Assembly (NCBI GenBank): GCA_009602725.1
Contig: WELB01000058.1
Location: 622,365-644,506, forward strand
Reading direction: 5' to 3'
Length of the DNA: 22,142 bases
From: Spirogloea muscicola
Lineage: Eukaryota; Streptophyta; Zygnematophyceae; Spirogloeales; Spirogloeaceae
How positions within the stretch are numbered: position 1 is the first letter of the stretch; the number at the start of each line of letters is the position of its first letter. The translations under genes and the position numbers were made by a program. Below are positions 3,010-22,053 of the stretch, one piece after another. The notes under the pieces were generated by a model. It saw only the letters and a list, made by a program, of their open reading frames with translations, searched no databases and was not told the DNA's origin.

Positions 3010-3420
3010 TGACCGGGCTGTACATGCCTGGCTTGTGGTCTATGTCTGCATCATATGCCCGCAAGCTGTCCTCTCACAAAGTGCCCTTTTTTCGTTGGAG
3101 TGTGAATCTCGCTCAACTTGCAGCGCTTCCAGGCTTTGGCCATCCATCATTAAGCTGGGTTTGCACTAAGCCAGGCCAGGCCAAATTGGTGCACAGGCTT
3201 CCCAACTTACCCTGTCGGATCTATATGTGCTCACTCTTGGGTACAAACGTCCCCCTTTAGTTGTACATTCGCCATATCACCTTAGCCCCTCAGCCAAGAA
3301 CTTTGCTTACTGTAGAACCATTATCTGCTCTGTACTTCTACCTGATCAGTGTTTGTGCTCGGCTTGGCCTCCCTTTCATATCATTTTCTCTCCCTTTTCT
3401 TGGCCGGTGCAAATGGTAGA
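3010..3420 (+). mobile_element. Decayed copy 1 of the LTRGY repeat family
   Basis: This aligns with the better copies at 12.1 kb and 17.7 kb. Shared strings include TGCAGCGCTTCCAGGC (cf. TGCAGCGCTCCCAGGC) and CTATATGTGCTCACTC around 3221-3236, which encodes the remnant LSDLYVLTLGY in the family frame. It is followed by CGTCCCCCTTTA and, at about 3363, by GGCCTCCCTTTCAT of the terminal module. The frame is broken by indels, so this is an old non-coding relic. Confidence 0.6.
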
Positions 3421-3586: not shown

Positions 3587-3826
3587 GCTCCAGCCCCTGA
3601 CAAGCCCAGGAGTGTTGTCCCAACCACCTCCTCAAGGGATTGCAGAGACCGATGCAAGTGCAATGGTTGTCTCAGGACCCAGTCACTTAGATCCACTGCT
3701 CGATGCACTGGGCTTCTGGACCCCGAACACAACTGTTTGGCCTTTCGAGAATGGCCTTGTGCTCTCATCTGCCCCAGTTGACCGACAGTTGAATCCCAAT
3801 TGTGGTCTTGTGGTCTGTCATTGGTG
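3587..3826 (+). other. Unassigned open frame, possible element relic
   Basis: The frame that includes 3612-3827 reads through a Pro/Ser-rich stretch and then DPLLDALGFWTPNTTVWPFE to a TGA at 3825-3827. It has no start context, splice partners or recognised domain. It lies directly before a decayed repeat copy, so it could be a remnant of the same element, but no second copy is present to test this. I do not call it a gene. Confidence 0.2.
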
Positions 3827-3919
3827 AATGATCATGATCACCGGCGGTTATTGGACCATTGGGGTACCCTGCCTCGCCCTGGACCTCTTGACAAAACAAG
3901 GACCATCCCCAAGGGAACC

Positions 3920-4230
3920 ACTTGTATAATTGCGATATGGATATCTACAACGGCTACGGCAATCAATGGCTCTTCTCCCTCCAGCATCTGGCTCAGCTGG
4001 CTGACGCACGTTGTCGTAGCCGTGGGGGGGGACAGCTTGGGGCCAGAAAAGCATTCAGCAGGCATCAGTTGCAAACTACAGGATGCGGCTTTTGCCAAAA
4101 ATGCAGCGCTTGCAAGCTATGGCTTGCCTTCAGCGTGCTGGGCGCGGACTAAGCAAGGCCACTGGCTTCCGTGGAGATTCACATCCTTCCAAAGTAGCCT
4201 GTCGAACCTATATGTGCTCATCGTGGTACT
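3920..4230 (+). mobile_element. Decayed copy 2 of the LTRGY repeat family
   Basis: The segment starting ATGGATATCTACAACGGCTA at about 3935 encodes MDIYNGYGNQW, then LQHLAQLADARCRSR. The copy at 12.0 kb encodes MDIYGGYGTKW, then LHRLALHVDARRRSR, so spacing and residue classes are kept. Downstream, TGCAGCGCTTGCAAG, GGCTTCCGTGGAG and CTATATGTGCTCA match later parts of the family. The frame is disrupted near 4090 onward and the LTRGY end is lost. Confidence 0.65.
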
Positions 4231-4384
4231 AAAAGTCGACCTTCAGCAGGCTTTGTATTCTTTACTCAGCTGCAGCCTCTGGCTGTAGACAGGGGACCCG
4301 CTACCTGGAGACTAGTTTCTCTGACCTGCAGCTGCTCAACAGGGAACATTGAGCACCCAGTGGCCACTTGAGTCGCTGTACGCT

Positions 4385-4519
4385 TTAGGGCCAACTCACA
4401 CCGGGTCGGTTGGACGCGGCCGAAGGTAACGTTTCGCGCGTTGTGTGGACGTCCGTTGCCAATTCAAGGCCAATATGAGGCCAAATTGCGACCGACCGAC
4501 CCGGTGTGATTGGCCCTTA
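4385..4519. mobile_element. PIF/Harbinger (Tourist-type) MITE with TTA target duplication
   Basis: The element spans 4388-4516 (129 bp). The left terminus reads GGGCCAACTCACACCGGGTC. The reverse complement of the right terminus reads GGGCCAATCACACCGGGTCG, the same sequence with one missing base, so the terminal inverted repeats are about 23 bp or more. TTA at 4385-4387 is repeated at 4517-4519, the three-base target site typical of PIF/Harbinger. There is no coding capacity, so any mobility would need a transposase in trans. Good terminal match and intact duplication suggest fairly recent insertion. Confidence 0.85.
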
Positions 4520-4565
4520 GTGCTTTTTCTGGCCTTCGAAGGTTTTCGTTCAATCTTCTTTCTCC

Positions 4566-4587
4566 TGGGCTGGCCAATCACAGCCAT
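4566..4587 (+). repeat. GGGCTGGC...CACAGCC box
   Basis: One of several scattered copies of a roughly 22-base box resembling TGGGCTGGCCTTTCACAGCC; the GGCTG and CAGCC halves can pair as a small hairpin. Others lie at 10724-10748 (+), 16572-16600 (-), 16651-16670 (-) and 17865-17890 (-), always next to repeat-family debris. It is probably a module of the same elements. Confidence 0.5.
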
Positions 4588-4681
4588 CGCCCATGACTGG
4601 AAGAGTCTTTCTTTCTTAATCAGCCCTTCTTAGCATTCTTTCGTAGCATTGGGCTTTGCTTTGTGTAGCCCCATGCTCCGC

Positions 4682-5128: not shown

Positions 5129-6051
5129 ATGGCCGCCGTCGCCGCCGCGCCCGTCGCCGCCGCCGCCGTCCGCCGCCGGCCCCGCCGCCCGCCGCTCCGC
5201 CGCGCCCCTCCGCATCATCTCTAAGGTCCCGCCCCGCCGCCAGGCTCCGTGGCCCGCATTCCTTGTTGCCCGCCGCCGCTGAAGCTTGCGGCGATCCCGC
5301 CGTCGCCGCCGCCGCCGCCTGCGCAGGTGTCGCAGGGCGACAAAGTGCCGGATCTGTCGCTGACGGACCAGAACGGCAAGCAGTTCAGCCTGTCCAAGCT
5401 CAAGGGCAAGCCCTACGTGCTCTACTTCTACCCCGCCGACAACACGCCCGGCTGCACCAAGGAGGTGGGTGTGCCAGCACTTGCCGAGGCGCTTGGCGGC
5501 AGAACCTTGGTCTGAGCAACTGTCATGGTTTTGATGCATTGTATCTGTAGTGGGTTCTTGAGGACCCTGCATTCTGGCCTTCAGAAGCTGGCATCATCAT
5601 CTGGCATCATGATCAAACTGCCATTGTCATCTGGGAGCAATGCTGCTCGCGGCGTCATCTGGGTGGCAGCCCCTAATTCTCACTGCTGGCGAGCTGGCTG
5701 CAGGCCTGCGCTTTCCGTGATGCATACAGCGTCTTCCAGAAGAAGGGCTGCGAGGTGATCGGCGTCAGCGGCGACAGCCCCGAGTCGCATCGCGAGTTCG
5801 CCAAGAGCCAGCGGCTGCCCTTCACGCTCCTCACGGATGAGGGCAACAAAGCCCGCAAGGCCTGGGGCATCCCCAGCGACTTCTTTGGTGCGCTCGCCGG
5901 ACGGCAGACCTATGTGGTCGATCGCGACGGCAAAGTGCAGCTCATTTTCAACAGCCAGTTCGACTCGGAGCGGCACGTCAAGGAGGCGCTCGGTGTGCTT
6001 GACAAAATTGGCGGCGGGCCCAAGCCGCTCCTTGGCTTCCTCAGATTCTGA
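5129..6051 (+). CDS. PRXQ: Peroxiredoxin Q, chloroplast type (frame disturbed in transit peptide)
   Basis: A thiol peroxidase reducing H2O2 and organic peroxides with thioredoxin as donor. Exons: 5129-5225, 5327-5464, 5704-6051 (TGA 6049-6051). Mature sequence begins [18 protein letters not shown]. The peroxidatic Cys is in NTPGCTKE and the resolving Cys follows five residues later in [10 protein letters not shown], the CxxxxC spacing of Prx[18 protein letters not shown] and [14 protein letters not shown] match plant PrxQ. The C-terminus carries about 14 extra residues ([13 protein letters not shown]). The Ala/Arg-rich leader from the only sensible ATG (5129) looks like a transit peptide, but its frame hits TAA at 5222-5224. 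The splice into exon 2 needs the other frame, ending RIISK before VSQGD, and that frame has no ATG. A one-base error in the GCC-rich tract is the simplest explanation; a missed mini-intron or real frameshift is possible. Product identity is near certain. Confidence 0.93.
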
Positions 6052-6911: not shown

Positions 6912-9738
6912 TCAACACCATTGAGTCACGAGGGTGTGTTGGTGCCAGACCTTCTTGGTATGTCCCACCTTTTTGGACCTCAGCTTGGCAATCTCATCAC
7001 GCATACGTGCTGCAACAAGCGGCCGCATAGTAGTTCTTAGTCCATAGTGGGTGTATGACTCCTTCATATGCAGTCACTTGTGGGACTCTATGTAGCTTAG
7101 ACATCAAAGACGTTGCTCACCTGCATCTCCATACCGTTCCTCATTGGCAGCACGAATCATGCTGCGAATCAGAGAAATCTCTTCTGCCAGTGGGTCTGCT
7201 TCATTGGCCCCAACACTGCACCACCTCAAAGCAAGTCTTGCATAAGGTATACATGTCACATCCCAGCAGCAGTGCTCCTACCAGCATGTGCAGATCTTAG
7301 AGTCAAAGGCTTAACGGATATCAGTAATAGCAGTTCTATCAGCCACACCACAAAGCTAAGCCCTCACGAGGCTCACTTTAGGTCACAGCACATCTTGACC
7401 AGCTGCTGCAAGGGTCAAAGCAAGCTGCAAGTACAGCCGTGCTCCATGCAAGCCGTGTCGTGAAGTGTAACAACATGCATTGTCTTTGCATTCTTGCTTT
7501 GACCCCCTTAACGACAATAAGCATACGGCAGCCAGAAACATCACGTGCTACACAGCCGACCATGAACGCCTATGGTCAACCTGTCAAGGTGCGAGTTGAT
7601 GATGGGGCCGGTGGTCCTCAAAATGGAGGCCCCCTTCAGCACAGGCTTATGGACAATCCGGACTGCATCATTCTGGATGATGGACTTGCTCACATAGATG
7701 GGCACCTGCTCTCAGCCAAGCAAGTACCATCACTACTTTGAACAGCCCCAGAATCTCCAACACTACTACACTTCAAACGACAGCCGAATCAACTAGCAGT
7801 GCTGGGGAGAATTCTGTGCTAGACAAAGGGAGATAACAAAATCGAATTTTGCAACAGTAACCCTAGCCGCAGCCATCATAAGGGCCCGAAGTAGTACCTG
7901 ACATCTCACAGCCAGGTTGATAGCATCTGAAGGCCTTGCGTCCACGGATATCATCTCCTTCTCACCAGGCTGACACAAAAATCGCAATATGAGCTGCCCT
8001 CATTGTGCTGCCCACCAGCTGTAAGACATGTTTACTGTGAACAGCCTGCATTCAGTCATGGTTCCAGGAGCGAAGGTTGGGCTTTACCTTTGCAAGTAAT
8101 ACCCTGGCATAATATGTATCTAGGACCCGCTGTGTCACTCTTACCATCCGAACCTGCATCAACAGTCTGTCTGTGTCAGAGAAATCTGACAACCTATGTT
8201 ACACGTTCAATCTCATAAACAAGTGTTCATGAATGCCATAATAGACAGAATCATATATGCCTATTCCATGTTTCAAAAACCTCTTGCGCAACCCTCATTG
8301 AAGTCATGCTATGCAGCTAAGTGGTCACGAGTCTGATGTAGCTGATTTCCTTTAGCTACTCGCTCGTCTCATGCTAAAGTACGACATACCTCGTACTTGA
8401 GGACATCAACCAGGTCCTTCATGAGCTCGTAGTAGTTTGGCCGAAGCTGCACCCACCAATGCAGCGTGGACATTAGTATAGCTGCTACCTGTTGTTCTGA
8501 AACCCATGACACAGACTTGTAAATTCAGCAAAAGACTGCGTCAACAGTGGGGTTTGGAAATCTTCTTGACTATGAGCATTTGCGAAAGCCAGAACAACAT
8601 CAATAGCATCTCTTACCCCTGCCTCGTGCCGTAGGCCCTTCAGCAACATCCCAATTGCCAGCTCACCTGAGGCCACAGAGAGCTTCAACATGGGTACTGG
8701 AAGTAACCCACATGCAGTCAATGCACATCGAGCTGACACGATGCGTTGTCAAATTTTGTCTCATTTTTGTCTCATTCTGCATCTCCTTCTCTCAGCTATG
8801 ACTATTCCAGGGCCCCCGCTAGTGGTGCAAAAGCCAGCTACTCTGTGCCTGAGCAGTTGCCCAGTGCCCTTTGGAAGAGAGGTGGTTCTCCCTGGTGCTT
8901 ACCGACCACAATCGGAAGCATTAGGTCTGACTGCCCCACCATCCTCAGGAAGATGGTTGGGGTGCTGGACTGGTACAGCAAGCGACCCGCAGTGGGATTG
9001 ACATGAACCACCTCCACTTCTGCTCCATTTGCCATGGTCATAAAGAGCTGGCTCCGGGAGGGGATCATCCGGACTGCACTACGCATGAGGTCATCAGTCT
9101 CTCAAAAATATCACCCAGCGTTGAGGCGGGACTACTATTTCAGTTCTGCCTATGAGCATCTACATGGCTGTTTTGTCGTGCTGCCAACTGCTATCCAGAG
9201 TGCAGCGAGCCTACCGAATCCTAAAAGCAGAGGGCAAGGCAACGTAAATGTGCTGGTCGGCGAATTTGTGGAATGTACTGCCCTGCTGCATGCGCCTGCA
9301 CTTACCAGCGTCGATCAGCTGAGCTTCCATGTACTCCTCATCATCGTCAATGCTGCAATTCTCCGACTCGCTGTCCGGGCTGACGCTCATATGCGTCCGG
9401 TCGCTCTGGCGTCCTACCGTCCGGAGCTTCACGCCGGTCGCAAACGAACAGGACCGTAGGGATGGCTGCAGCTTGAGAGTGGAGGTCAAAGGAGTCCTGC
9501 AAGACGGTAGACCACTCGTCAGCTGTGACCCATAGGCCCAGAGCCTGCATGCTCGCCGAATTGAGTAGATGCAACATCGTAACCTCAAGCAACAGCAAGC
9601 AAGTCGCACACCGTGTCAATTTGCCTCCTGTGTTGCTACTAATCCAGCGCCGACAGTGACGTAGCGAGCTATACCATACACGATAGCCAACGGCCGACGC
9701 CGATACCACTTCCACCGCATGATGGCGGAAGCGGACAT
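6912..9738 (-). CDS. BBD-like bifunctional nuclease (BFN/DUF151 + UVR), divergent paralogue, intron-rich
   Basis: Exons in transcript order: 9738-9680 (tentative), about 9496-9306, 9073-8903, 8666-8617, 8446-8390, 8153-8088, 7969-7898, 7705-7581, 7215-7121, 7009-6912 (TGA 6914-6912); about 327 residues. The phases agree at every junction. The acidic linker DDDEEYMEAQLIDA precedes the BFN domain. Its hallmark is ISVDARPSDAINLAVRCQ, followed by VPIYVSKSI. The C-terminal UVR motif spans a splice: IRAANEERYGDA then ARMRDEIAKLRSKK. The architecture equals Arabidopsis BBD1/BBD2, described as RNase/DNase proteins of basal defence. The domain's first part is divergent: VEVVHVNPTAGRLL replaces the usual VRCVHNNPxGGxLPDY. 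The start is uncertain: ATG at 9738 opens a basic leader (MSASAIMRWKWYRRRPLAIV) that could be a plastid transit peptide, and the next acceptor could be at 9496 or 9544. An in-frame TGA at 9618-9616 shows that an intron must lie there. Confidence 0.85.
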
Positions 9739-10370: not shown

Positions 10371-10723
10371 CCGGTCACGTGGGCTTGAGCAGCGACGGAA
10401 CGGGCGGCGCAGCGCCACTTCCCCGTCAGCGTGCCGTCGAGATCTCTGCCGCCACTTTCAATATAACTCGAGCTCCCATCTATCAGCGTCTCAGCGTCGG
10501 TCCCCGCTGCTTCGCCAAAACGCCGTCTCTGATCAGGGTCGATCGTGCCGCACGGAGACGCCTGGCTTTGAGGCTGCAATACGCCAATGACAAATGCGGT
10601 GGAGTGGGCCGCTGGGCCCTGAGCGTCCTCTGGCTGATGTCTTAGTCCTAGTCCCCAGGCATGGACTGTAGTGTAGTTCTTTATCGGCACCTCTTTCTTT
10701 GGCTTGGGATATTGTCCATTCTT
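10371..10723. other. Intergenic, no gene recognised
   Basis: GC content falls off from the island. Open frames on both strands show no known motif. Confidence 0.4.
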
Positions 10724-11823: not shown

Positions 11824-12396
11824 GACAGAGGAAAATCTAAGTCAGCAGTCCTGTATTGATACTAAGGCGGGCAAGAGATACTGCTGTACACACAAACGTT
11901 GGACCTACATTGTTGTCGCTTGGACCTGCATCACGTCGCTGCAAAAACAATTTCACCTTTGTCAAAGGCCCTACCTGCTTCCAACGTTCTTCTTCCCGTG
12001 CGCCATGGACATATACGGCGGCTACGGAACGAAGTGGTCTTCCCTCCTCCATCGCTTGGCACTGCATGTTGATGCCCGCCGACGTAGTCGGGCGGGTAGC
12101 TTAGGGCATTCTAGCGTTCCGCAAGCCATTGTAGCATGCTATAGGATGAGGCTATCATTAAGTCTGCAGCGCTCCCAGGCACTCGCGATTTACCAACGTG
12201 CTGGTCGTGCATTAGCCCAGGCTAGTGGCTTCCGTGGTGGTGGTTTGGCGCCTCAGTATAGCTTGTCAGATATGCATGTGCTCACTCGGGGATATTTAGT
12301 GTCCCCCTTAGCCAGCTCATTGCCCAGTTAACAGGACATTTGTAAGGCTAGAATTGGCCTCCCTTTCAATTCCATGCGCACCGCGCGCCTTCTCTC
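11824..12396 (+). mobile_element. Copy 3 of the LTRGY repeat family, best preserved, with open frame
   Basis: One frame is open from 11824 to TAA 12329-12331 (about 168 codons). Conserved landmarks: CAMDIYGGYGTKWSSLLHRL at 12002-12061, DARRRSRAGSLG, then YRMRLSLSLQRSQALA, RAGRALAQASGFRGGG and LSDMHVLTRGY ending at 12298. Other copies terminate just after LTRGY; this one runs on 11 codons. The tail holds TGTAAG (12341-12346) and the terminal module 12352-12396 (GGCCTCCCTTTCAATTCCAT, then GCGCACCGCGCGCC). A pattern of yG..g..w..lL..la...R.R....R..LS..LQR..A resembles, from memory, C-terminal ends of reverse transcriptase polyproteins of LINE-like elements. That class call is inference. No RT core (YADD-type motif) lies in the window. 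Confidence 0.65.
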
Positions 12397-13922
12397 TGAT
12401 CTGCAAAACTGTACAGGGGCTGCCAACCAGATGACACTTTCATGCCAAGCCGCGATTTGCACGACCATCAGCAGACAGAGGTAGCTATGGCCCAATTCTG
12501 ACTTGTTGCCCTCGGCTACACCTGTGTACAATGGACCAACTTGGAGGAAGAACCTCATACCATGCAATCATCACAAGAGTGGCTCTTCAGCAAAGTACTT
12601 GCTCTTTGATGAAGTGTAATAATGTGTATAATCATTAAGTCCATATGAAACAGTAGACTGAGTCTAGCAACTTCTGCAGCACGTCATTCTTTCGGGTTCA
12701 CGTAGTACATCAGTCCTCAAGGCAGGCTCTTCTTAAATCAATGACTCCATCTGATATGTATGCTTGCTATGTTAAAGTATAAGTCACATTCTGCACCATT
12801 GAAGGGTAGTGAAAAGCTAACCTCATGCAAGTCCTTCTCATGCACGACATGCATTCAGGCCACAGATGGTCAGCATCCACTCAAGCTGTACTCAGGATGA
12901 AGCCTTCAAATGTGCAGACACACAATTGCCTACCAAGGAAATGCATAGCCTGTATGCTCTCTCTGTTGTCTTATTCTGAGCGCCGGTGAGCGTCAACATT
13001 TGTAATTCTTCACTCGGTGCCTTAGGCTAACAGCCCCATCACGATATTGGTAATGTATGCCGCTTGCTGACCATCCATGTTAAGAATATCTGACAAAAAA
13101 GGATAGCATCTGCTACTGGTTCATATTTGCTGAAGGTTATTATAGAGCTACTAAAAGCCAACCATAAGTGCTTGAAAATAATAACCACTTGCTACAAGAA
13201 CTGGTACTGAAGTCTCTAAGCCATCAGCCAGCCTGGAGGTGAAAGATGCGCATAAGCGCAGTACCATCGTCAAGGAGCAATCCTGCTTCTAAGAATGGAA
13301 GCAATGCTGCTTCTGACAAGTGCCTGAGGAGCTAAGGAGAAGAGGAAGCAAGCTTTGGAGTAGGGCCTCCACATCCATCAAGGACTTGCTCCAACTGAAG
13401 CAATGTGGACAAGGCAGCTCCAAGCACGTGCCCCTTTGCCAACAATCTGCACAAATCACCTACTGTTCTGGTATGTACGCTACTGGGTAGACAGTATTTA
13501 CAATGTATGTACACGGAGGTATCTAAGTAACGTCAAAGCCAGCAGGAGCTGGAGGCCGGAAGCAAGAGCTGAAACTCTTTGCTATGGAGTTACCAATTTA
13601 CGACTGCAAGGTCAGTAAATGATGTGCACTGTGGGCCCTAAAGGTAATGTCTGGTGTTGTGAAAGGATGAACGTGGTATGAAGTTTTGCCAGCCTCGGTG
13701 CAGTCCTTTGCAGCAAGGCAAGCATTGGACATCGCCTATGCCTGTGGGATGAGGCCAGGATAGGGAGCAGGCTGCATAATGAGCACATACAATCCTAGAA
13801 CATGGTGCCCACTGGCAAGGATTGACATGTACATACTTATTTACACATGAAGCTGCAGAGACTCACATTGCAATTACTGATAATTAGGTTGTTACAAGCA
13901 TCTCCTCTTATCATCATGCAGA
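12397..13922. other. Intergenic and 3' flank of the second BBD gene
   Basis: About 1.5 kb of lower-GC DNA without a recognisable gene, repeat copy or RNA. The right end probably includes the 3' UTR of the minus-strand BBD gene. Short open frames near 13403-13618 lack support. Confidence 0.45.
13892..13896 (-). promoter_or_regulatory. Possible poly(A) signal of the second BBD gene
   Basis: Minus-strand TGTAA 27 bases past the stop. Another at 13841-13845 gives a longer and perhaps likelier 3' UTR. Confidence 0.3.
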
Positions 13923-15934
13923 TTAGCTGACCTGTTTTGCTTGGTCCTCCTTGAGCATGCGCATCTTGTTTAGCTCATCCCGCAGTCGCGCTGAGTACCG
14001 CACAGGCAACCACATGGACTGATAAGCCAACCTGCCTCGCTTGTCCTCGTAAGTGACGACCCTAACCAGAGCTGCTACTTCAATATAAACTTGTTCTGAC
14101 TTGCAAGTGACGACTACCAATCAATAGCAATTTAAAACTGTGGTCATTGACAGCATACAGAAGTGCTCTCTGAGGGCCTTTCCCTTTCCTGCACGTTGCA
14201 TTATGTTTTCCTGCATATCCTATCTCACGCATATGTGAGCGTTGTGGCCAGACCTGCATCACTGTAACGCTCTTCAACAGCAGCCATCATCATGGAGCGC
14301 ACCAGCACAAGCTCTGCTGCAGCTGGGCAAGTCTCATCGGCGCTCACTCTGCTCAACACAAGATGCAACAAGACCCCTCAGTCATGCCATTCCAGTAAAT
14401 GCAGTCTTCAAAGTCCGTGTTAAGTGATTTGCCTGATCCTCAAGGCAGGCCCAAGCGACAGCATTTCTGAGCTCTCTCATGGCATGTAGGCATCTATGAT
14501 TAGTGGCATGTATGAAGAGGGAGGCTATTGAACCTTCACACAAAGGAGGAGTATATGAAAGGAAGGTCGCATCAGATATGAGGCGCATGACGCACTTGTC
14601 TAGGTCGGTGAGGGAGTGACCGAAGGTGGGGTCGCGAAGCAGGCGCGGCGCCGAGACTGCGGGATCCGGGATAACCTTGACGCCGTCGCCAACTGCAAGC
14701 AGCTTGTTGACCTGAATCGGCACCTTGCTGCGCACTGCAATATTGATGGCGTCCGACGGGCGCAAGTCCAGGCTGATGGCTGCGCTTGCTGCCCCGTCGC
14801 CGTTGCCACCTCCGCCGGCACGGCCGAGGTACAGGCGGGCATAGTATGCCTCGCACACGCGGTGCGTGACACGCGCCAGCCGCACCTCGTATCCCATCAT
14901 CTCCACCATGTCGCGGATGACCTGGTACACAGTCGGCCGTGCTATGGGCACGTTACGGATGGCCTCCATGAGCATTGTCGACGGGAGCTCAGTGACGATG
15001 ATGGGTAGCAGGATCTGGCTCTCATCCTCCATCTTGAGCACGATTGCAGGCTGCGCAGCGTAGTCCGGCAGCCTCCCGCCATCCGGCTTGTTATGCACGC
15101 ACCGGACGTTGCGCCCATCTGTCATCTTGATGACAAAGCCGTCCGCTCCGCTCTTGACCTCCACTGCAAACGGGAGCGCCCAGTCAGGACAAACATCAGA
15201 TGCCATTGGTCTTGCTTCATTAGATGGACCCCGCATTGTCTACCGCAGTGCGTGGCCACCATGGCCAGGTTGGTCCATGACATGCCACGCCAGTCAGCCC
15301 CTCCCTGGCGATCAAGAGCAGGTGGACAGCTCCTGCGACTGATGTGGCACAGGTATGAGGCACTCAACCATCCTACCCATCCTGTCACCGGCGACTGCCC
15401 AGGTCACCTCTCGCTTTTATAGTGACTGAGATCACAATGCTAGTCATCGAGAACTTCTCAGATGACATATCCATTATACATCCGCGCAGAAGCGTCCCAA
15501 GCAAGGCCACGATAGCAAAGTGTACGATGTGGTGAAGGCTGTAAAGAGGCCTCCAGCAAAGGGTAGCAAAGGTGGGGCATGGGTGCTCTACCAGCGTCAA
15601 AGACGGTGGCATTGACGTAGTTGTCGTCCTGCTCGCTGATGACCTCCTCCATGTTACTCTCGTTGGACGCACGGCGGAGGACGCTGCGCCTGTGCGCTGC
15701 CTGCTGGCCCCCTTGTCCCGGGCAGGCCTGGCAAGTGGATCTGGACGCACACTTCCCGCCGGCGAAGGGCGTCCGCGGAGGGCCTGCCTGGCGGGCGGAC
15801 CAGCAGATGCGAGCGCATGGCGGCGCGGGGCTCCGTCGCGAACTCCCGGCCTTGCCAGTGCCGTCGCCCAGAGCCGGCACAGCCGCCGGCGCAGAGCCTA
15901 GCAGGGCTGACATTGTGGTGGCGGCCATCACCAT
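13923..15934 (-). CDS. BBD-like bifunctional nuclease (BFN/DUF151 + UVR), conserved paralogue
   Basis: Exons in transcript order: 15934-15592, 15163-14596, 14348-14254, 13990-13923 (TAA 13925-13923); 357 residues. The start is ATG at 15934 (MVMAATTMSALLGS) or two codons later at 15928; the frame stays open upstream only through GC-rich DNA. About 100 residues of Ala/Arg/Ser-rich leader, a likely plastid transit region, precede QDDNYVNATVFDA. The BFN domain occupies the 568-base exon: GFVIKMTDGRNVRCVHNKP, PAIVLKMEDESQILLPIIV, RPTVYQVIRDMVEMMGYEVR, LDLRPSDAINIAVRSKVPIQ. A GGGGNGDGAAS insertion follows the YARLYL segment. UVR: MMMAAVEERYSDA spliced to ARLRDELNKMRMLK. Plant BBD proteins are nucleases linked to basal defence and ABA responses; the role here is inferred. 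Three intron positions and the 95-base UVR exon are shared with the tandem paralogue at 6912-9738. Confidence 0.92.
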
Positions 15935-16540
15935 CTTCCCGCCGCCTGAGATGATCCTCGAGGCCGCTGCGCCGCCGCACTGCCAAGGCGATGGGGGCAC
16001 CCGCGAGCGGAAGCAGCCGCTAGTGCCGGCGAAGGGCAGCGCAGGGCCGGGCTGCCTAGGCCCTCGAGCTCGATGCCGGCAGACGCGGCCAACGCCCTCA
16101 GAAGCGGCAGCGACAGGCCACAGCGGGAGAGCCTGCGTAGCGGCGGCGGCGGCAGCGGCGGCGGCGGCGACGGNGGAGGGCGGGGATCCGGCCGGGCCCG
16201 CCCCTATCCGCCCCCCAGCCACCGGCGCCGGCGGCCCATGTGCCCACGTCGAGCTCGCTGCCTTCCGAACGGCGGCCGAGCGGCCGCGCGGCGCCCGCCC
16301 CACCCGCCGGCCGCCGTCGCGGGCATCCTCACATGGGCCGCCGCGCCTGCCGTGAGAGCACCCTCCGCTCCTCCCCGGCCCCCCCCTCCCCGCCCGACTG
16401 CGGTGACGTTCGGCGGGGTCCTCCCCCGGTCGGCGGCCGATGGGTCTCGCCGTCGGCAGTGGGCGGCTCCCTCGTGTCGTTCTCGTTCCGTGAGCAACAT
16501 GTCCCGTCTCGTGGAAGGTCCATGCTGACAGGCTGACGAG
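15935..16540 (-). promoter_or_regulatory. GC-rich region upstream of the second BBD gene, with an unresolved base
   Basis: GGC-triplet-rich DNA with an ambiguous base at 16174. It presumably contains the promoter and 5' UTR. Long open frames on both strands, including the upstream extension of the BBD frame to 16678, are best explained by GC richness. Confidence 0.4.
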
Positions 16541-16571
16541 GAAAGGAACAAAACAGCCCTTTCTGTAGTAT

Positions 16572-16670
16572 GGTGGTGGCTGTGACAGGCCAGCCCAAAG
16601 ACGAAAGTGGCTCCCCCCTAAAGCAAAGCGGCTGCTGACATTTAAAAGAGCGGCTGTGAAAGCCAGCCAG
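16572..16670 (-). repeat. Two GGGCTGGC...CACAGCC boxes
   Basis: On the minus strand, CTTTGGGCTGGCCTGTCACA (16600 downward) and CTGGCTGGCTTTCACAGCCG (16670 to 16651). They are the same box as at 4566 and 10724 and border the repeat cluster that follows. Confidence 0.5.
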
Positions 16671-16703
16671 ATGCACACAGGTGTTCATGACGGATTCATG
16701 TCC

Positions 16704-16927
16704 TCCCAAGCACTCGCGATTCACCAGCGTGCTGGTCGTGCATTAGCCCAGGCTAATGGCTTCCGTGGTGGTGGTTTGGCTCCTCAGTATAGCTTGTCAG
16801 ATATGCATGTGCTTACTCGGGGATATTTAGTGTCCCCCTTAGCCAGCTCATTACCCAGTTACCAGGACATTTGTAAGGCTAGAATTGGCCTCCCTTTCAA
16901 TTTCATGCGCACCGCGCGCCTTCTCTC
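16704..16927 (+). mobile_element. Copy 4 of the LTRGY repeat family (5' truncated)
   Basis: Aligned base for base with 12173-12396 over 224 positions without gaps, with 9 differences by my count (about 96% identity). It starts inside the coding part (SQALAIHQRAGRALAQANGF), continues through LSDMHVLTRGY and the TGTAAG tail to the terminal module at 16882-16927. The TAA that ends copy 3 is TAC here, so the frame reads further. Truncation at the 5' side with an intact 3' side fits target-primed retrotransposition. Confidence 0.75.
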
Positions 16928-16960
16928 GACGGAGCCACAGGCTAGGCAGTCAGGGCGCTC

Positions 16961-17201
16961 TTAGTACCCCCGTGTCAGCAGTAGGAAGTCAGATGAGCTG
17001 AGGGGAGGAAGAGCAACCCCGCTGCGCAAGCCAGAGGCTGCTGCAAGGGCGCGACCAGCGCGGCGGTGCAAAGCAAGCGCTTGGGACCGCTGTAGGGACA
17101 TAGACAAACGCATTCGATAGCAGGACACAAGACCCAAAGGCACCGAGCCACCGGGGAGGGCCGCCAGGTGGTCCTTGTACTTGAGCAAAGCCCAGAAAAG
17201 A
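16961..17201 (-). mobile_element. Copy 5 of the LTRGY repeat family (inverted, divergent)
   Basis: On the minus strand the frame reads YRMRLSMSLQRSQALA, then RRAGRALAAASG, and ends SSSDFLLLTRGY with TAA at 16963-16961. Compared with copy 3 the protein is largely the same, but most codons differ at silent sites (AGG/CGA, CTA/TTG, AGT/TCC, TTA/CTT). It is placed tail to tail with copy 4. Confidence 0.75.
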
Positions 17202-17330
17202 GAGAGAAGGCGCGCGGGGCGCATGAATTGAAAGGGAGGCCAATTCAAGCCAATACATTGTTCAGGCAGAGTCGAGTGCAGACAAAGCCCAGAAAAGAAG
17301 AAAGAGTTCCCCCAAGAGCGTGCAATAGGC
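17202..17330 (-). mobile_element. Tail-only fragment of the repeat family
   Basis: Minus strand: TTTTCTGGGCTTTG, then TGCACTCGACTCTGCCTGAA, then the terminal module (17246-17202) GAATTGGCCTCCCTTTCAAT, CATGCGC. The same order occurs in the tail of copy 7 at 17690-17603. Its module forms an inverted pair with that of copy 4 (16882-16927), bracketing copy 5. Confidence 0.6.
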
Positions 17331-17510
17331 CAGGCTAATGGCTTCCGTGTTGGTGGTCTGGCTCCTCAGCTTAGCTTGTCAGATGAGTATGTGCTCACTC
17401 GAGGATATCAACGTCCCCCGTAGCGAGCTCATTACCCCGTTACCAGGACCTTTGTAAGGCTCGATTTGCCCTCCCTTCTATTATCATGCGCATAGTGCGC
17501 CTTCTCCCAA
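17325..17510 (+). mobile_element. Copy 6 of the LTRGY repeat family (3' part)
   Basis: Begins at GGCCAGGCTAATGGCTTCCG and encodes LSLSDEYVLTRGYQRPP ending in TAG near 17420, which is probably close to the ancestral C-terminus. The tail has TGTAAG at about 17451 and a degenerate terminal module at 17463-17507. Confidence 0.65.
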
Positions 17511-17602
17511 GAAGAACGAACTAGGTCCAAAAGCGCCGTAAGTTGCAATGTGAAGCTTGTCACCGCTGGGCCTCAGCGGCGGGGAAAGCGGCTGCTAGCA
17601 CA

Positions 17603-17950
17603 GGGAGAAGGTGCTCGGTGCGCATGGATTCAAAGGGAGCCCAATCATGCCATTCCACTGTTTCAGGCAATAGCCAGTGCAAAGAATGGGTTATCACAAG
17701 ACGAAGGGGGATGAGGGTTTTTGTGCGAAAGCAGGCTGAAGGCGCACTTCTAATAACCACGAGTGAGCACATACAGATCCGACAGGCCAAACTTGGTGAG
17801 CCAGAGCACCGGCACGGAAGCCAGTGGCCAGTAGTAAGCACAGAGAAGGAAGGCACTTTTAGAGGCAATGGCTGTGAAAGGGCAACCTGACAAGAATGGA
17901 CAAGGTCGCAGTGGAAGCCCCAACATGAAAATGCAAACCAACTCAGTCAA
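17603..17950 (-). mobile_element. Copy 7 of the LTRGY repeat family (inverted)
   Basis: Minus strand: a CCCTTTCACAGCCATTGCC box (about 17885), GGCTTCCGTGCCGGTGCT, then FGLSDLYVLTRGY with a stop at 17752-17750. A longer tail follows, ending in the terminal module at 17646-17603. A small frameshift lies between the GFRAGALA and LSDLYVLTRGY parts. It is tail to tail with copy 6. Confidence 0.65.
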
Positions 17951-21600: not shown

Positions 21601-22053
21601 TGGTCTGCAAGCCTCAACCCTCGCTTCGTTGCAGGATCCTGCAATCGCAGTCGGCGTGGTGAAATGCATCAGTCCTTGCCCGAGGACGACGGCGAAGTTC
21701 AGACAACCAAAGAGAAGGTACACGGTGCGCATGAGATGTAAGAGTGGCCCATACAAGCCGAAACAATGTCAGGCGAATATGAGTGCATAATATGGGGCTA
21801 CATGAAATGAAATCCTGTGCTAAGGTGGCTAAGGTAACAGTATGACGCAATTGGAGGAATGGCCCTCACCTTCCCCACGCCCGGGCCGCTGCTGCCACCG
21901 AGCCGCCATGCGAGTGTCGCAGAGCAGTAGAGGAAGACGGCCGCAGATAGCGCTGCGCAGGTCGCAGGAGGAGAGCAGCGCCGGCGCAGGCGGCCGCGGC
22001 GGAGGGACCGCGCGCGCGCGTACGTGGCCGACCGCAGCGGCCCGCCGCCGCGG
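18650..22053 (-). CDS. Galacturonosyltransferase, GAUT family, GT8 (start not resolved)
   Basis: Exons in transcript order: about 22053-21870, 21638-21552, 21427-21164, 20805-20713, 20507-20263, 20025-19737, 19577-19408, 19285-19115, 18947-18650 (TAA 18652-18650). All phases agree; about 538 residues plus a leader of some 60. The first exon encodes an Arg-rich stretch, then a hydrophobic segment (AALSAAVFLYCSATLAW), a type II Golgi signal anchor. SVARQLRDQMTLAKCYIVLA and ELSNQVRAGQ form the usual stem. Catalytic GT8 part: CIFSDNVLATSVVVNST, FRNPKYLAILNHLRFYIPEV, the metal-binding KKVIFLDDDVVIQRDL, NVNGAVETCLENFHRF, CGWAFGMNVFDLDAW, LWKLGTLPPGLLTFYGL, and the HxxGxxKPW motif as HWNGNMKPWLKL. 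In plants, GAUTs add galacturonic acid from UDP-GalA to pectic homogalacturonan in the Golgi. No in-frame ATG lies between the anchor and the poly-T run at the edge, so the start is upstream or lost. Family secure; acceptor substrate inferred. Confidence 0.93.
20948..20979. repeat. CCATTGAG short tandem repeat in a GAUT intron
   Basis: Three exact 8-base units and a degenerate fourth (TAATTGAG), in the intron between 21163 and 20806. Confidence 0.8.
21711..21773 (-). mobile_element. Repeat-family tail fragment inside a GAUT intron
   Basis: Minus strand: CCTGACATTGTTTCGGCTTG, a GGGCCACTC stretch, then CATGCGCACCGTGTACCTTC. It parallels the tail plus terminal module at 17275-17202 in order and spacing. 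It lies in the first visible intron (21869-21639). Confidence 0.5.

What the first reader, a model, noticed from the sequence alone, without database searches (positions are those of the whole stretch)
11824..17950. Undescribed repeat family that once encoded a selected protein ending in LTRGY
At least seven copies or pieces share one C-terminal coding segment. The copies at 12140-12298 (+) and 17121-16961 (-) both read YRMRLS-x-SLQRSQALA...RAGRALA-x-ASG. Their codons differ mostly silently (AGG/CGA Arg, CTA/TTG Leu, AGT/TCC Ser, GCA/GCC Ala). Repeats decaying neutrally would not keep the protein while losing the codons, so the sources of these copies evolved under purifying selection as active elements. 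5' truncation with shared 3' ends suggests a LINE-like retrotransposon; the pattern LS..LQR..A after a YG..G segment resembles RT-polyprotein tails from memory.
Basis: partly seen in the sequence, partly recalled or inferred. Interest (0 to 1): 0.75.

Follow-up and report, generated by a model that had tools for sequence, protein, structure and literature searches.

The report
R2-like LINE families, photosynthetic eukaryote
The repeated protein tail is the end of a copy-and-paste jumping gene built like the R2 element of animals, and several related families of it, some with many nearly identical intact copies, are spread through this photosynthetic organism's genome.

Summary
The segment at 11989-12396 is the 3' end of a 5'-truncated copy of a LINE family (A). 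The 'second copy' at 17119-16964 (-) belongs to another family (B), itself interrupted by an A insertion with a 6-bp target duplication. Elsewhere in this 153-Mb photosynthetic eukaryote genome, family B is a ~4.1-kb element with one long open frame: zinc finger, reverse transcriptase, Cys/His knuckle, endonuclease, then the tail ending LTRGY. The model of the C-terminal part matches R2 retrotransposon proteins best (Z 11.7-13.7; next 8.1), and the main residues of a restriction-like endonuclease (RLE) are conserved, with variant spacing. At least five families share this plan. B and relatives of D have many near-identical intact frames, so activity is probably recent; no intact A copy was seen. 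Among 21 A copies, private changes look neutral (ratio 1.07) and shared changes do not (0.23): dead copies decay while source elements are selected. Insertions are dispersed, with short target duplications and a pyrimidine-rich preference. Verdict: RLE-type LINEs, a new variant of a known kind; clade placement is open.

The parts
11989..12396 (+). Family A LINE, 5'-truncated copy: last 102 codons (11990-12295, end of the endonuclease plus the tail ending LTRGY) and 3'UTR ending CTTCTCTC
   Evidence: no clear target duplication at this copy
16626..17164 (-). Family B LINE, 3' part (last codon at 16964, then 3'UTR), 94-95% identical to intact B1 elements, split by a family A insertion
   Evidence: B1 matches 17164-16928 and 16694-16626
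17161..17188 (-). Further piece of the same B copy, separated in element coordinates by a missing stretch of about 113 nt
   Evidence: B1 3673-3700 against 3814
16695..16927 (+). Family A fragment inserted into the B 3'UTR (96% identical to 12172-12396; the first 8 nt are not family A)
16689..16694 (+). Left copy of the target-site duplication GACGGA
   Evidence: intact B elements give the empty site
16928..16933 (+). Right copy of the target-site duplication GACGGA
17202..17251 (-). Family A 3'-end piece (90-94%), 3'UTR only
17319..17506 (+). A-like 3' piece (83%) still reading ...SLSDEYVLTRGY
17605..17645 (-). 3'-end piece (88% to A over 42 nt), 3'UTR only
17730..17841 (-). A/C-like tail piece (74-78%), reads ...LSDLYVLTRGY
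3107..3251 (+). C-like tail piece (69%), reads ...LSDLYVLTLGY
3896..4232 (+). C-like C-terminal piece (70%), frame broken
10619..10653 (+). 35-nt piece of a family D 3'UTR (94%)
21711..21770 (-). Weak match to the A 3' end (74% over 61 nt, E 5e-4)

Best explanation
The shared segment is the C-terminus of the single protein of a lineage of non-LTR retrotransposons (LINEs) of the restriction-like-endonuclease (RLE) type. Order of parts: low-complexity N-terminus with one or two C2HC zinc fingers, reverse transcriptase, Cys/His knuckle, PD-(D/E)xK-like endonuclease, helical tail ending (L/V)(T/S)RGY. Inferred mechanism: the protein binds the 3' end of its own RNA, its RLE nicks pyrimidine-rich genomic DNA, the RT primes cDNA from the nick (target-primed reverse transcription), and early stops leave 5'-truncated copies with a common 3' end and short variable target duplications. 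Shown here: gene order, the predicted endonuclease fold and its match, shared 3' ends, truncation staircase, target duplications, purifying selection on source lineages, neutral decay of copies, and near-identical intact copies. Inferred: the enzymatic steps and present activity.
For: Intact B element in L021: 1379-codon open frame ending LTRGY, RVT_1 E 4.4e-17. Six near-full-length B copies of 4.05-4.14 kb in two subgroups, 99.8-99.9% identical within and about 95% between. C-terminal model (mean pLDDT 73-88 over residues 111-170 and 181-240): the six lowest Foldseek E-values are R2 proteins, best 2.6e-6; seven R2 entries at Z 11.7-13.7 (rmsd 3.6-4.6, 190-212 residues) against 8.1 for the next row. 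RLE landmarks in 9 of 9 rows of A3: H-(N/D)-LLR, D-x14-D, K-x2-(K/H)-Y, then G..(W/F). RT profile: R2 1.6e-8, LINE-1 ORF2 0.04-0.11. C2HC zinc finger in the 8 of 10 rows of A1 that reach it, and in both E proteins. Staircase 5' ends and common 3' end. Target duplications: mean longest common word 5.71 over 24 rows against 4.76 (sd 0.21, highest of 200 shuffles 5.55); an A insertion in B has GACGGA on both sides, with intact B as empty site. Selection: B1-B2 dN/dS 0.18, C-C 0.20, D-D 0.17. In 21 of 22 A copies, singletons 63 N / 24 S (61.8 N expected), shared changes 12 N / 23 S (24.3 N expected).
Against: No Pfam family names the endonuclease, and a sequence profile of the C-terminal part finds no related PDB chain, so the RLE rests on a predicted fold from only 9 sequences (mean pLDDT 59; residues 1-79 and 273-305 below 50) plus motif spacing. 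The model of the whole protein failed (pLDDT 45). The knuckle is C-x1-C-x11/12-(H/N)-x3-C, not the published CX2-3CX7-8HX4C; the R of RH and the P of PD are absent. Family E's RT matches group II intron RTs slightly better than R2. The 3'UTRs do not fold better than shuffles. The window's main copy shows no clear target duplication. No transcript or activity data.
Confidence: 0.92

Rival explanations
1. APE-type LINE (L1-like or Dualen/RandI): the segment would be the tail of an ORF2 with an apurinic endonuclease in front of the RT, with or without an additional RLE.
For: L1 and Dualen LINEs are reported from Chlamydomonas and its relatives (PMC8226300, passages seen); RVT_1 alone does not separate the types.
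Against: No APE or RNase H domain by Pfam in the frames tested of families A to E. B is about 4.1 kb and its first in-frame ATG is 109 nt from the 5' end; the frame in front of the RT holds only low-complexity sequence, a zinc finger and a linker. Genome-wide, PF14529 gave 0 matches and PF03372 10, none examined further (the tool can miss weak matches). The RT profile prefers R2 over LINE-1.
Confidence: 0.05
2. A degenerate host gene family or exon, duplicated through the genome and under selection for a host function.
For: Protein conserved while codons drift; intact frames.
Against: Common 3' end, 5' truncation staircase, target duplications and nesting, RT plus endonuclease in the frame, thousands of candidate places (2751 for A, 19471 for the tail of B; rough first-look counts), neutral private changes in copies.
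Confidence: 0.01
3. The segment at 11989-12396 marks a non-autonomous short element (SINE-like) rather than truncated LINE copies, because many copies are about 400-470 nt long.
For: The 39 other long matches are about 400 nt, and the median upstream extension shared with other copies is only 4-61 nt.
Against: The query is itself truncated at 11989, which caps every match. The longest shared upstream extension runs from 8 to 800 nt over 21 copies, copies start anywhere from position 493 to 1365 of the 1771-nt reference, and the frame is homologous to the LINE protein throughout. No tRNA or Rfam RNA is found in the window.
Confidence: 0.02

Closest known systems
R2 non-LTR retrotransposon (PDB 8gh6, 8ibw, 8iby, 8ibz, 9dou, 9nl2, 9nl3)
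   Same: Single protein with N-terminal Cys/His zinc finger, RT, Cys/His knuckle and RLE; best structural match and best RT profile match; 5'-truncated copies.
   Different: No rRNA, tRNA or other Rfam RNA in 20 loci that hold or flank insertions; no Myb domain found by Pfam; different knuckle spacing; RxxD in place of PD; 14-17% identity in the aligned fold.
Non-site-specific R2-like elements BLAG of the cockroach Blattella germanica (PMC7650587, passages seen)
   Same: R2-like RLE elements scattered through a genome, with a varying number of N-terminal zinc fingers (one in the A, B, C and E proteins, two in the D protein L036).
HERO / NeSL / Utopia / R4 / CRE clades of RLE LINEs (PMC4640811, abstract and sections 3, 9, 10 read)
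   Same: RLE with zinc fingers and RT; HERO contains many non-specific families.
   Different: No Ulp1 protease or RNase H found; no reference sequences on hand, so RT phylogeny was not tested.
Dualen/RandI (green algae)
   Same: RLE-bearing LINE known from green algae (Dualen in PMC8226300, passages; APE plus RLE as stated in PMC4640811).
   Different: No APE and no RNase H in the elements here.

Membership tests
RLE-type non-LTR retrotransposons (broad class) | Single ORF with central RT | tested here: met
   One open frame through six B copies of 4.05-4.14 kb; RVT_1 E 4.4e-17; RVT_1 in 10 of 10 members of A1
RLE-type non-LTR retrotransposons (broad class) | Restriction-endonuclease-like fold behind the RT | tested here: met
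   Predicted fold only; seven R2 entries at Z 11.7-13.7, next row 8.1; helix-strand order. The C-terminal sequence profile alone had no relative in PDB
RLE-type non-LTR retrotransposons (broad class) | RLE active-site pattern: (R)H, PD...D, KX2KY, GXW (PMC5678591, passages) | tested here: met
   H, D-x14-D and K-x2-(K/H)-Y in 9 of 9 rows of A3; in A1 8 of 10 rows (two stop before it). R of RH, P of PD and exact GXW spacing differ
RLE-type non-LTR retrotransposons (broad class) | CCHC knuckle with spacing CX2-3CX7-8HX4C (PMC5678591, passages) | tested here: inconclusive
   A Cys/His cluster is at the expected place but spaced C-x1-C-x11/12-(H/N)-x3-C; the published spacing is not met
RLE-type non-LTR retrotransposons (broad class) | N-terminal Cys/His zinc finger | tested here: met
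   C-x2-C-x11/12-H-x3-C in the 8 of 10 A1 rows that reach it and in both E proteins (a pattern with H-x4-C matched none). Pfam zf-met only E 0.08-0.12, below cut-off
Non-LTR retrotransposons (target-primed reverse transcription) | Common 3' ends, variable 5' truncation, target duplications of variable length | tested here: met
R2 clade in the strict sense | Insertion at a fixed site in 28S rRNA genes | tested here: not met
   0 Rfam matches at gathering score in 20 loci (72,985 bases) around insertions
R2 clade in the strict sense | Myb domain behind the N-terminal zinc finger | tested here: inconclusive
   No Myb hit by Pfam, but Pfam also fails on the zinc finger
NeSL clade | Ulp1-like protease, or spliced-leader/U2 target | tested here: inconclusive
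   No protease domain by Pfam and no snRNA in 20 loci, but Utopia members without protease exist (PMC4640811)
Dualen/RandI | APE endonuclease in addition to RLE | tested here: not met
   No APE by Pfam in the frames tested
Any RLE clade | RT phylogeny with reference elements | not testable with these tools
   No Repbase, Dfam or eukaryotic protein collection on hand

The most novel reading that the evidence does not exclude
A previously undescribed, non-site-specific clade of RLE-only LINEs in the green lineage (or an alga with a green plastid), marked by an altered knuckle, an R-x-x-D active site and the (L/V)(T/S)RGY tail, has radiated into at least five families in one genome, several still active, while APE-type LINEs appear to be absent.
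Probability: 0.4. Interest if true: 0.6.

Novelty: new variant of a known kind. Interest (0 to 1): 0.47.

Why it matters
RLE-type LINEs branch early and are mostly site-specific, and the paper read here names Amoebozoa, SAR and Opisthokonta for their widest lineage (Utopia, PMC4640811). A dispersed, many-family, apparently recent RLE lineage in a genome with chlorophyll a/b antenna genes bears on how site specificity is lost, and it offers near-identical intact copies for biochemical work. The split between private (neutral) and shared (selected) changes is also a clean way to show that dead repeats record a selected source.

Tried and rejected
Full-length AlphaFold model of the B protein: too poor to use (mean pLDDT 45). 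Profile of the C-terminal part against PDB sequences: one chance hit, E 2.6. RNA structure of four 3'UTRs: z-scores -1.16, 0.13, 0.34, -0.38, so no support for a special 3' stem-loop. Relatives in viral contigs: 20 pattern matches, none confirmed. Rfam and tRNA searches of the window and of 20 loci: nothing. RVT_1 top hits fetched as possible LINE outgroups: the long frames read in L047-L050 and L052 look Gypsy-type by eye (no family search), of no use as LINE reference; L051 gave no frame of 700 aa without N. Ribosomal target, tRNA target and exon-of-host-gene readings were dropped for the reasons given. Family A: no intact full-length copy was seen; the longest frames fetched are 952 and 675 codons. 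Papers: 10 searches ran. Nothing in the titles and abstract starts they list describes RLE-only LINEs in green algae, but most of the listed papers were not opened and the library lacks most subscription journals, so this is weak. For PMC4640811 I read the abstract and sections 3, 9, 10; for PMC5678591, PMC7650587 and PMC8226300 only passages; all others only as listings.
Full report
What was checked. The window is C58:622365-644506 of a 153-Mb assembly in 471 contigs. The genome holds a light-harvesting protein family (68 matches), and the exon tested matches chlorophyll a/b-binding proteins in PDB, so the host is a photosynthetic eukaryote, probably of the green lineage. A genome search with 11824-12396 gave 43 matches from 40 scored of 2751 rough candidates. 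One is the window itself, three are short, and all 39 others begin at query position 166-171, so the repeat starts at 11989. Seven window pieces carry the coding tail and three more only the 3'UTR.

Longer copies. Twenty-one family A copies share the 3' end; the longest upstream extension each shares with another copy runs from 8 to 800 nt, two of them limited by the locus fetched, and against a longer reference the copies start anywhere from position 493 to 1365 of 1771. This is the staircase of 5' truncation. Six B copies share 4.05-4.14 kb (L025 lacks about 60 nt at the 5' end) and fall into two subgroups, 99.8-99.9% identical within and about 95% between. The C-terminal 305 aa of B are found over their whole length, without stops, at 97-100% identity in 34 of 141 listed matches (129 of 19471 rough candidates scored), and 11 of these 34 lie in open frames of 1341-1488 codons, stop to stop. 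Families C (67-69% to A over 300 aa) and D (46-48%) came, family E (40-41% to B over 305 aa). No intact family A copy was seen (longest frames 952 and 675 codons). Every C-terminus read to its stop in families A to E ends (L/V)(T/S)RGY.

What the protein is. Pfam finds only the reverse transcriptase above cut-off. By sequence the RT of B and of the family profile is nearest to R2 in PDB (2e-7 and 1.6e-8), ahead of LINE-1 ORF2 (1.4e-4 and 0.04); family E alone ranks group II intron RTs first (1.6e-5) and R2 third (2.4e-4). A C2HC zinc finger, C-x2-C-x11/12-H-x3-C, lies in front of the RT in every protein that reaches it: 8 of 10 rows of A1 and both E proteins, twice in the D protein L036. An AlphaFold model of the C-terminal 305 aa has mean pLDDT 59, with 73-88 over residues 111-170 and 181-240 and below 50 in 1-79 and 273-305. 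It matches R2 proteins: Foldseek E 2.6e-6 to 6.8e-3 for the top six rows, and Z 11.7-13.7 (rmsd 3.6-4.6) for the top seven, next row 8.1. The RLE landmarks published for R2-type LINEs (PMC5678591, passages) are present in 9 of 9 rows of A3: a His at the start of the first helix, D-x14-D, K-x2-(K/H)-Y, then a G..W/F. But the knuckle is spaced C-x1-C-x11/12-(H/N)-x3-C, and R before H and P before the first D are missing.

Selection. The window pair is saturated at silent sites (pS 0.786, pN 0.271). Between subfamilies with measurable dS, dN/dS is 0.18 (B1-B2), 0.20 (C-C) and 0.17 (D-D). Between families it is 0.10-0.31 where dS is finite, but dS there is above 1, so those values are rough; some pairs are saturated; two decayed A copies give 0.50. 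In 21 of 22 aligned A copies (one duplicate dropped), changes private to one copy are 63 replacement and 24 silent, against 61.8 replacement expected from their own substitution types, ratio 1.07. Changes shared by two or more copies are 12 and 23, against 24.3 replacement expected, ratio 0.23. Measures that mix both classes over 22 copies give 0.28-0.32.

Integration. Target duplications are short and variable. Over 24 A rows (one without a 5' flank in hand, one probable duplicate) the mean longest word shared by the two flanks is 5.71, against 4.76 (sd 0.21, highest of 200 shuffles 5.55) for mismatched flanks; the window's main copy at 11989 shows none that is clear. By eye, three of six B copies have a repeated word near both ends (L021 6 nt, L028 8 nt, L027 14 nt) and the other three none that is clear. 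The best single case is in the window: an A fragment at 16695-16927 sits in the B 3'UTR between two copies of GACGGA (16689-16694 and 16928-16933), and intact B elements show the uninterrupted site. The 15 nt before A insertions are 65% pyrimidine against 49% background, and before B insertions 67% against 43% (0 of 5000 draws as high in each case; 22 A and 6 B copies). The 8 nt behind are enriched for B (0 of 5000; the exact B 3' end is uncertain by a few letters) but not for A (686 of 5000). No Rfam RNA or tRNA lies in 20 loci around insertions, so the elements are dispersed with a base-composition preference rather than tied to a known RNA gene.

Mechanism. From the anatomy the most likely mechanism is target-primed reverse transcription with an RLE nick, as for R2. 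Shown: domain order, predicted fold and its match, shared 3' ends, truncation, target duplications, selection, near-identical intact copies. Inferred: nicking, RNA recognition (3'UTR folding gives no support) and present activity.

Membership. The element meets the main features of the broad RLE class, with a variant knuckle. It is not a strict R2 (no 28S target), not Dualen (no APE or RNase H found) and shows no NeSL protease. Clade placement needs reference RT sequences that were not on hand. No APE-type LINE endonuclease was detected in the genome (PF14529 0 matches; PF03372 10 matches, none examined further), with the caveat that genome searches here can miss weak matches. Ten paper searches listed nothing that describes RLE-only LINEs in green algae, which says little because most listed papers were not opened and most subscription journals are not held.

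Verdict. The finding is sound and its interpretation right in kind. It is a new variant of a known kind of element; the interest lies in the host group, the number of intact families and the lack of site specificity.

Noticed in passing
window 14700-15206 (-): Bifunctional-nuclease domain gene (PF02577, E 9.5e-18). The region 7580-9060 (-) looks by eye like an exon-split relative; not tested.
   Followed up: partly
window 5339-6048 (+): Peroxiredoxin-type gene in at least two exons (AhpC-TSA, E 1.1e-13 and 1.1e-20).
   Followed up: partly
window 4540-4640 (-) and L002, L012, L013, L018, L024, L025, L037: A dispersed motif around GCGATGGCTGTG, often with TTGGCCAGCC behind it, recurs near several LINE insertions; it may be the 3' end of another repeat family and a frequent landing place.
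   Followed up: no
window 4386-4519: Inverted repeat of 32 nt (81%) with 70 nt between the arms, carrying GACCGACCGACCC, a string also present at the 5' end of the B2 elements.
   Followed up: no
G000 contigs C401:14990-15386 and C102:143169-143565: Two contigs carry a family A copy with the same 3' flank, and many light-harvesting exons appear on two or more contigs with similar scores; the assembly may hold both haplotypes.
   Followed up: no
G000, families: Relatives of family D appear in 23 listed open frames of over 1300 codons with near-equal scores, and family E in at least 150 listed copies, so the whole lineage seems larger and partly younger than family A in the window suggests.
   Followed up: partly
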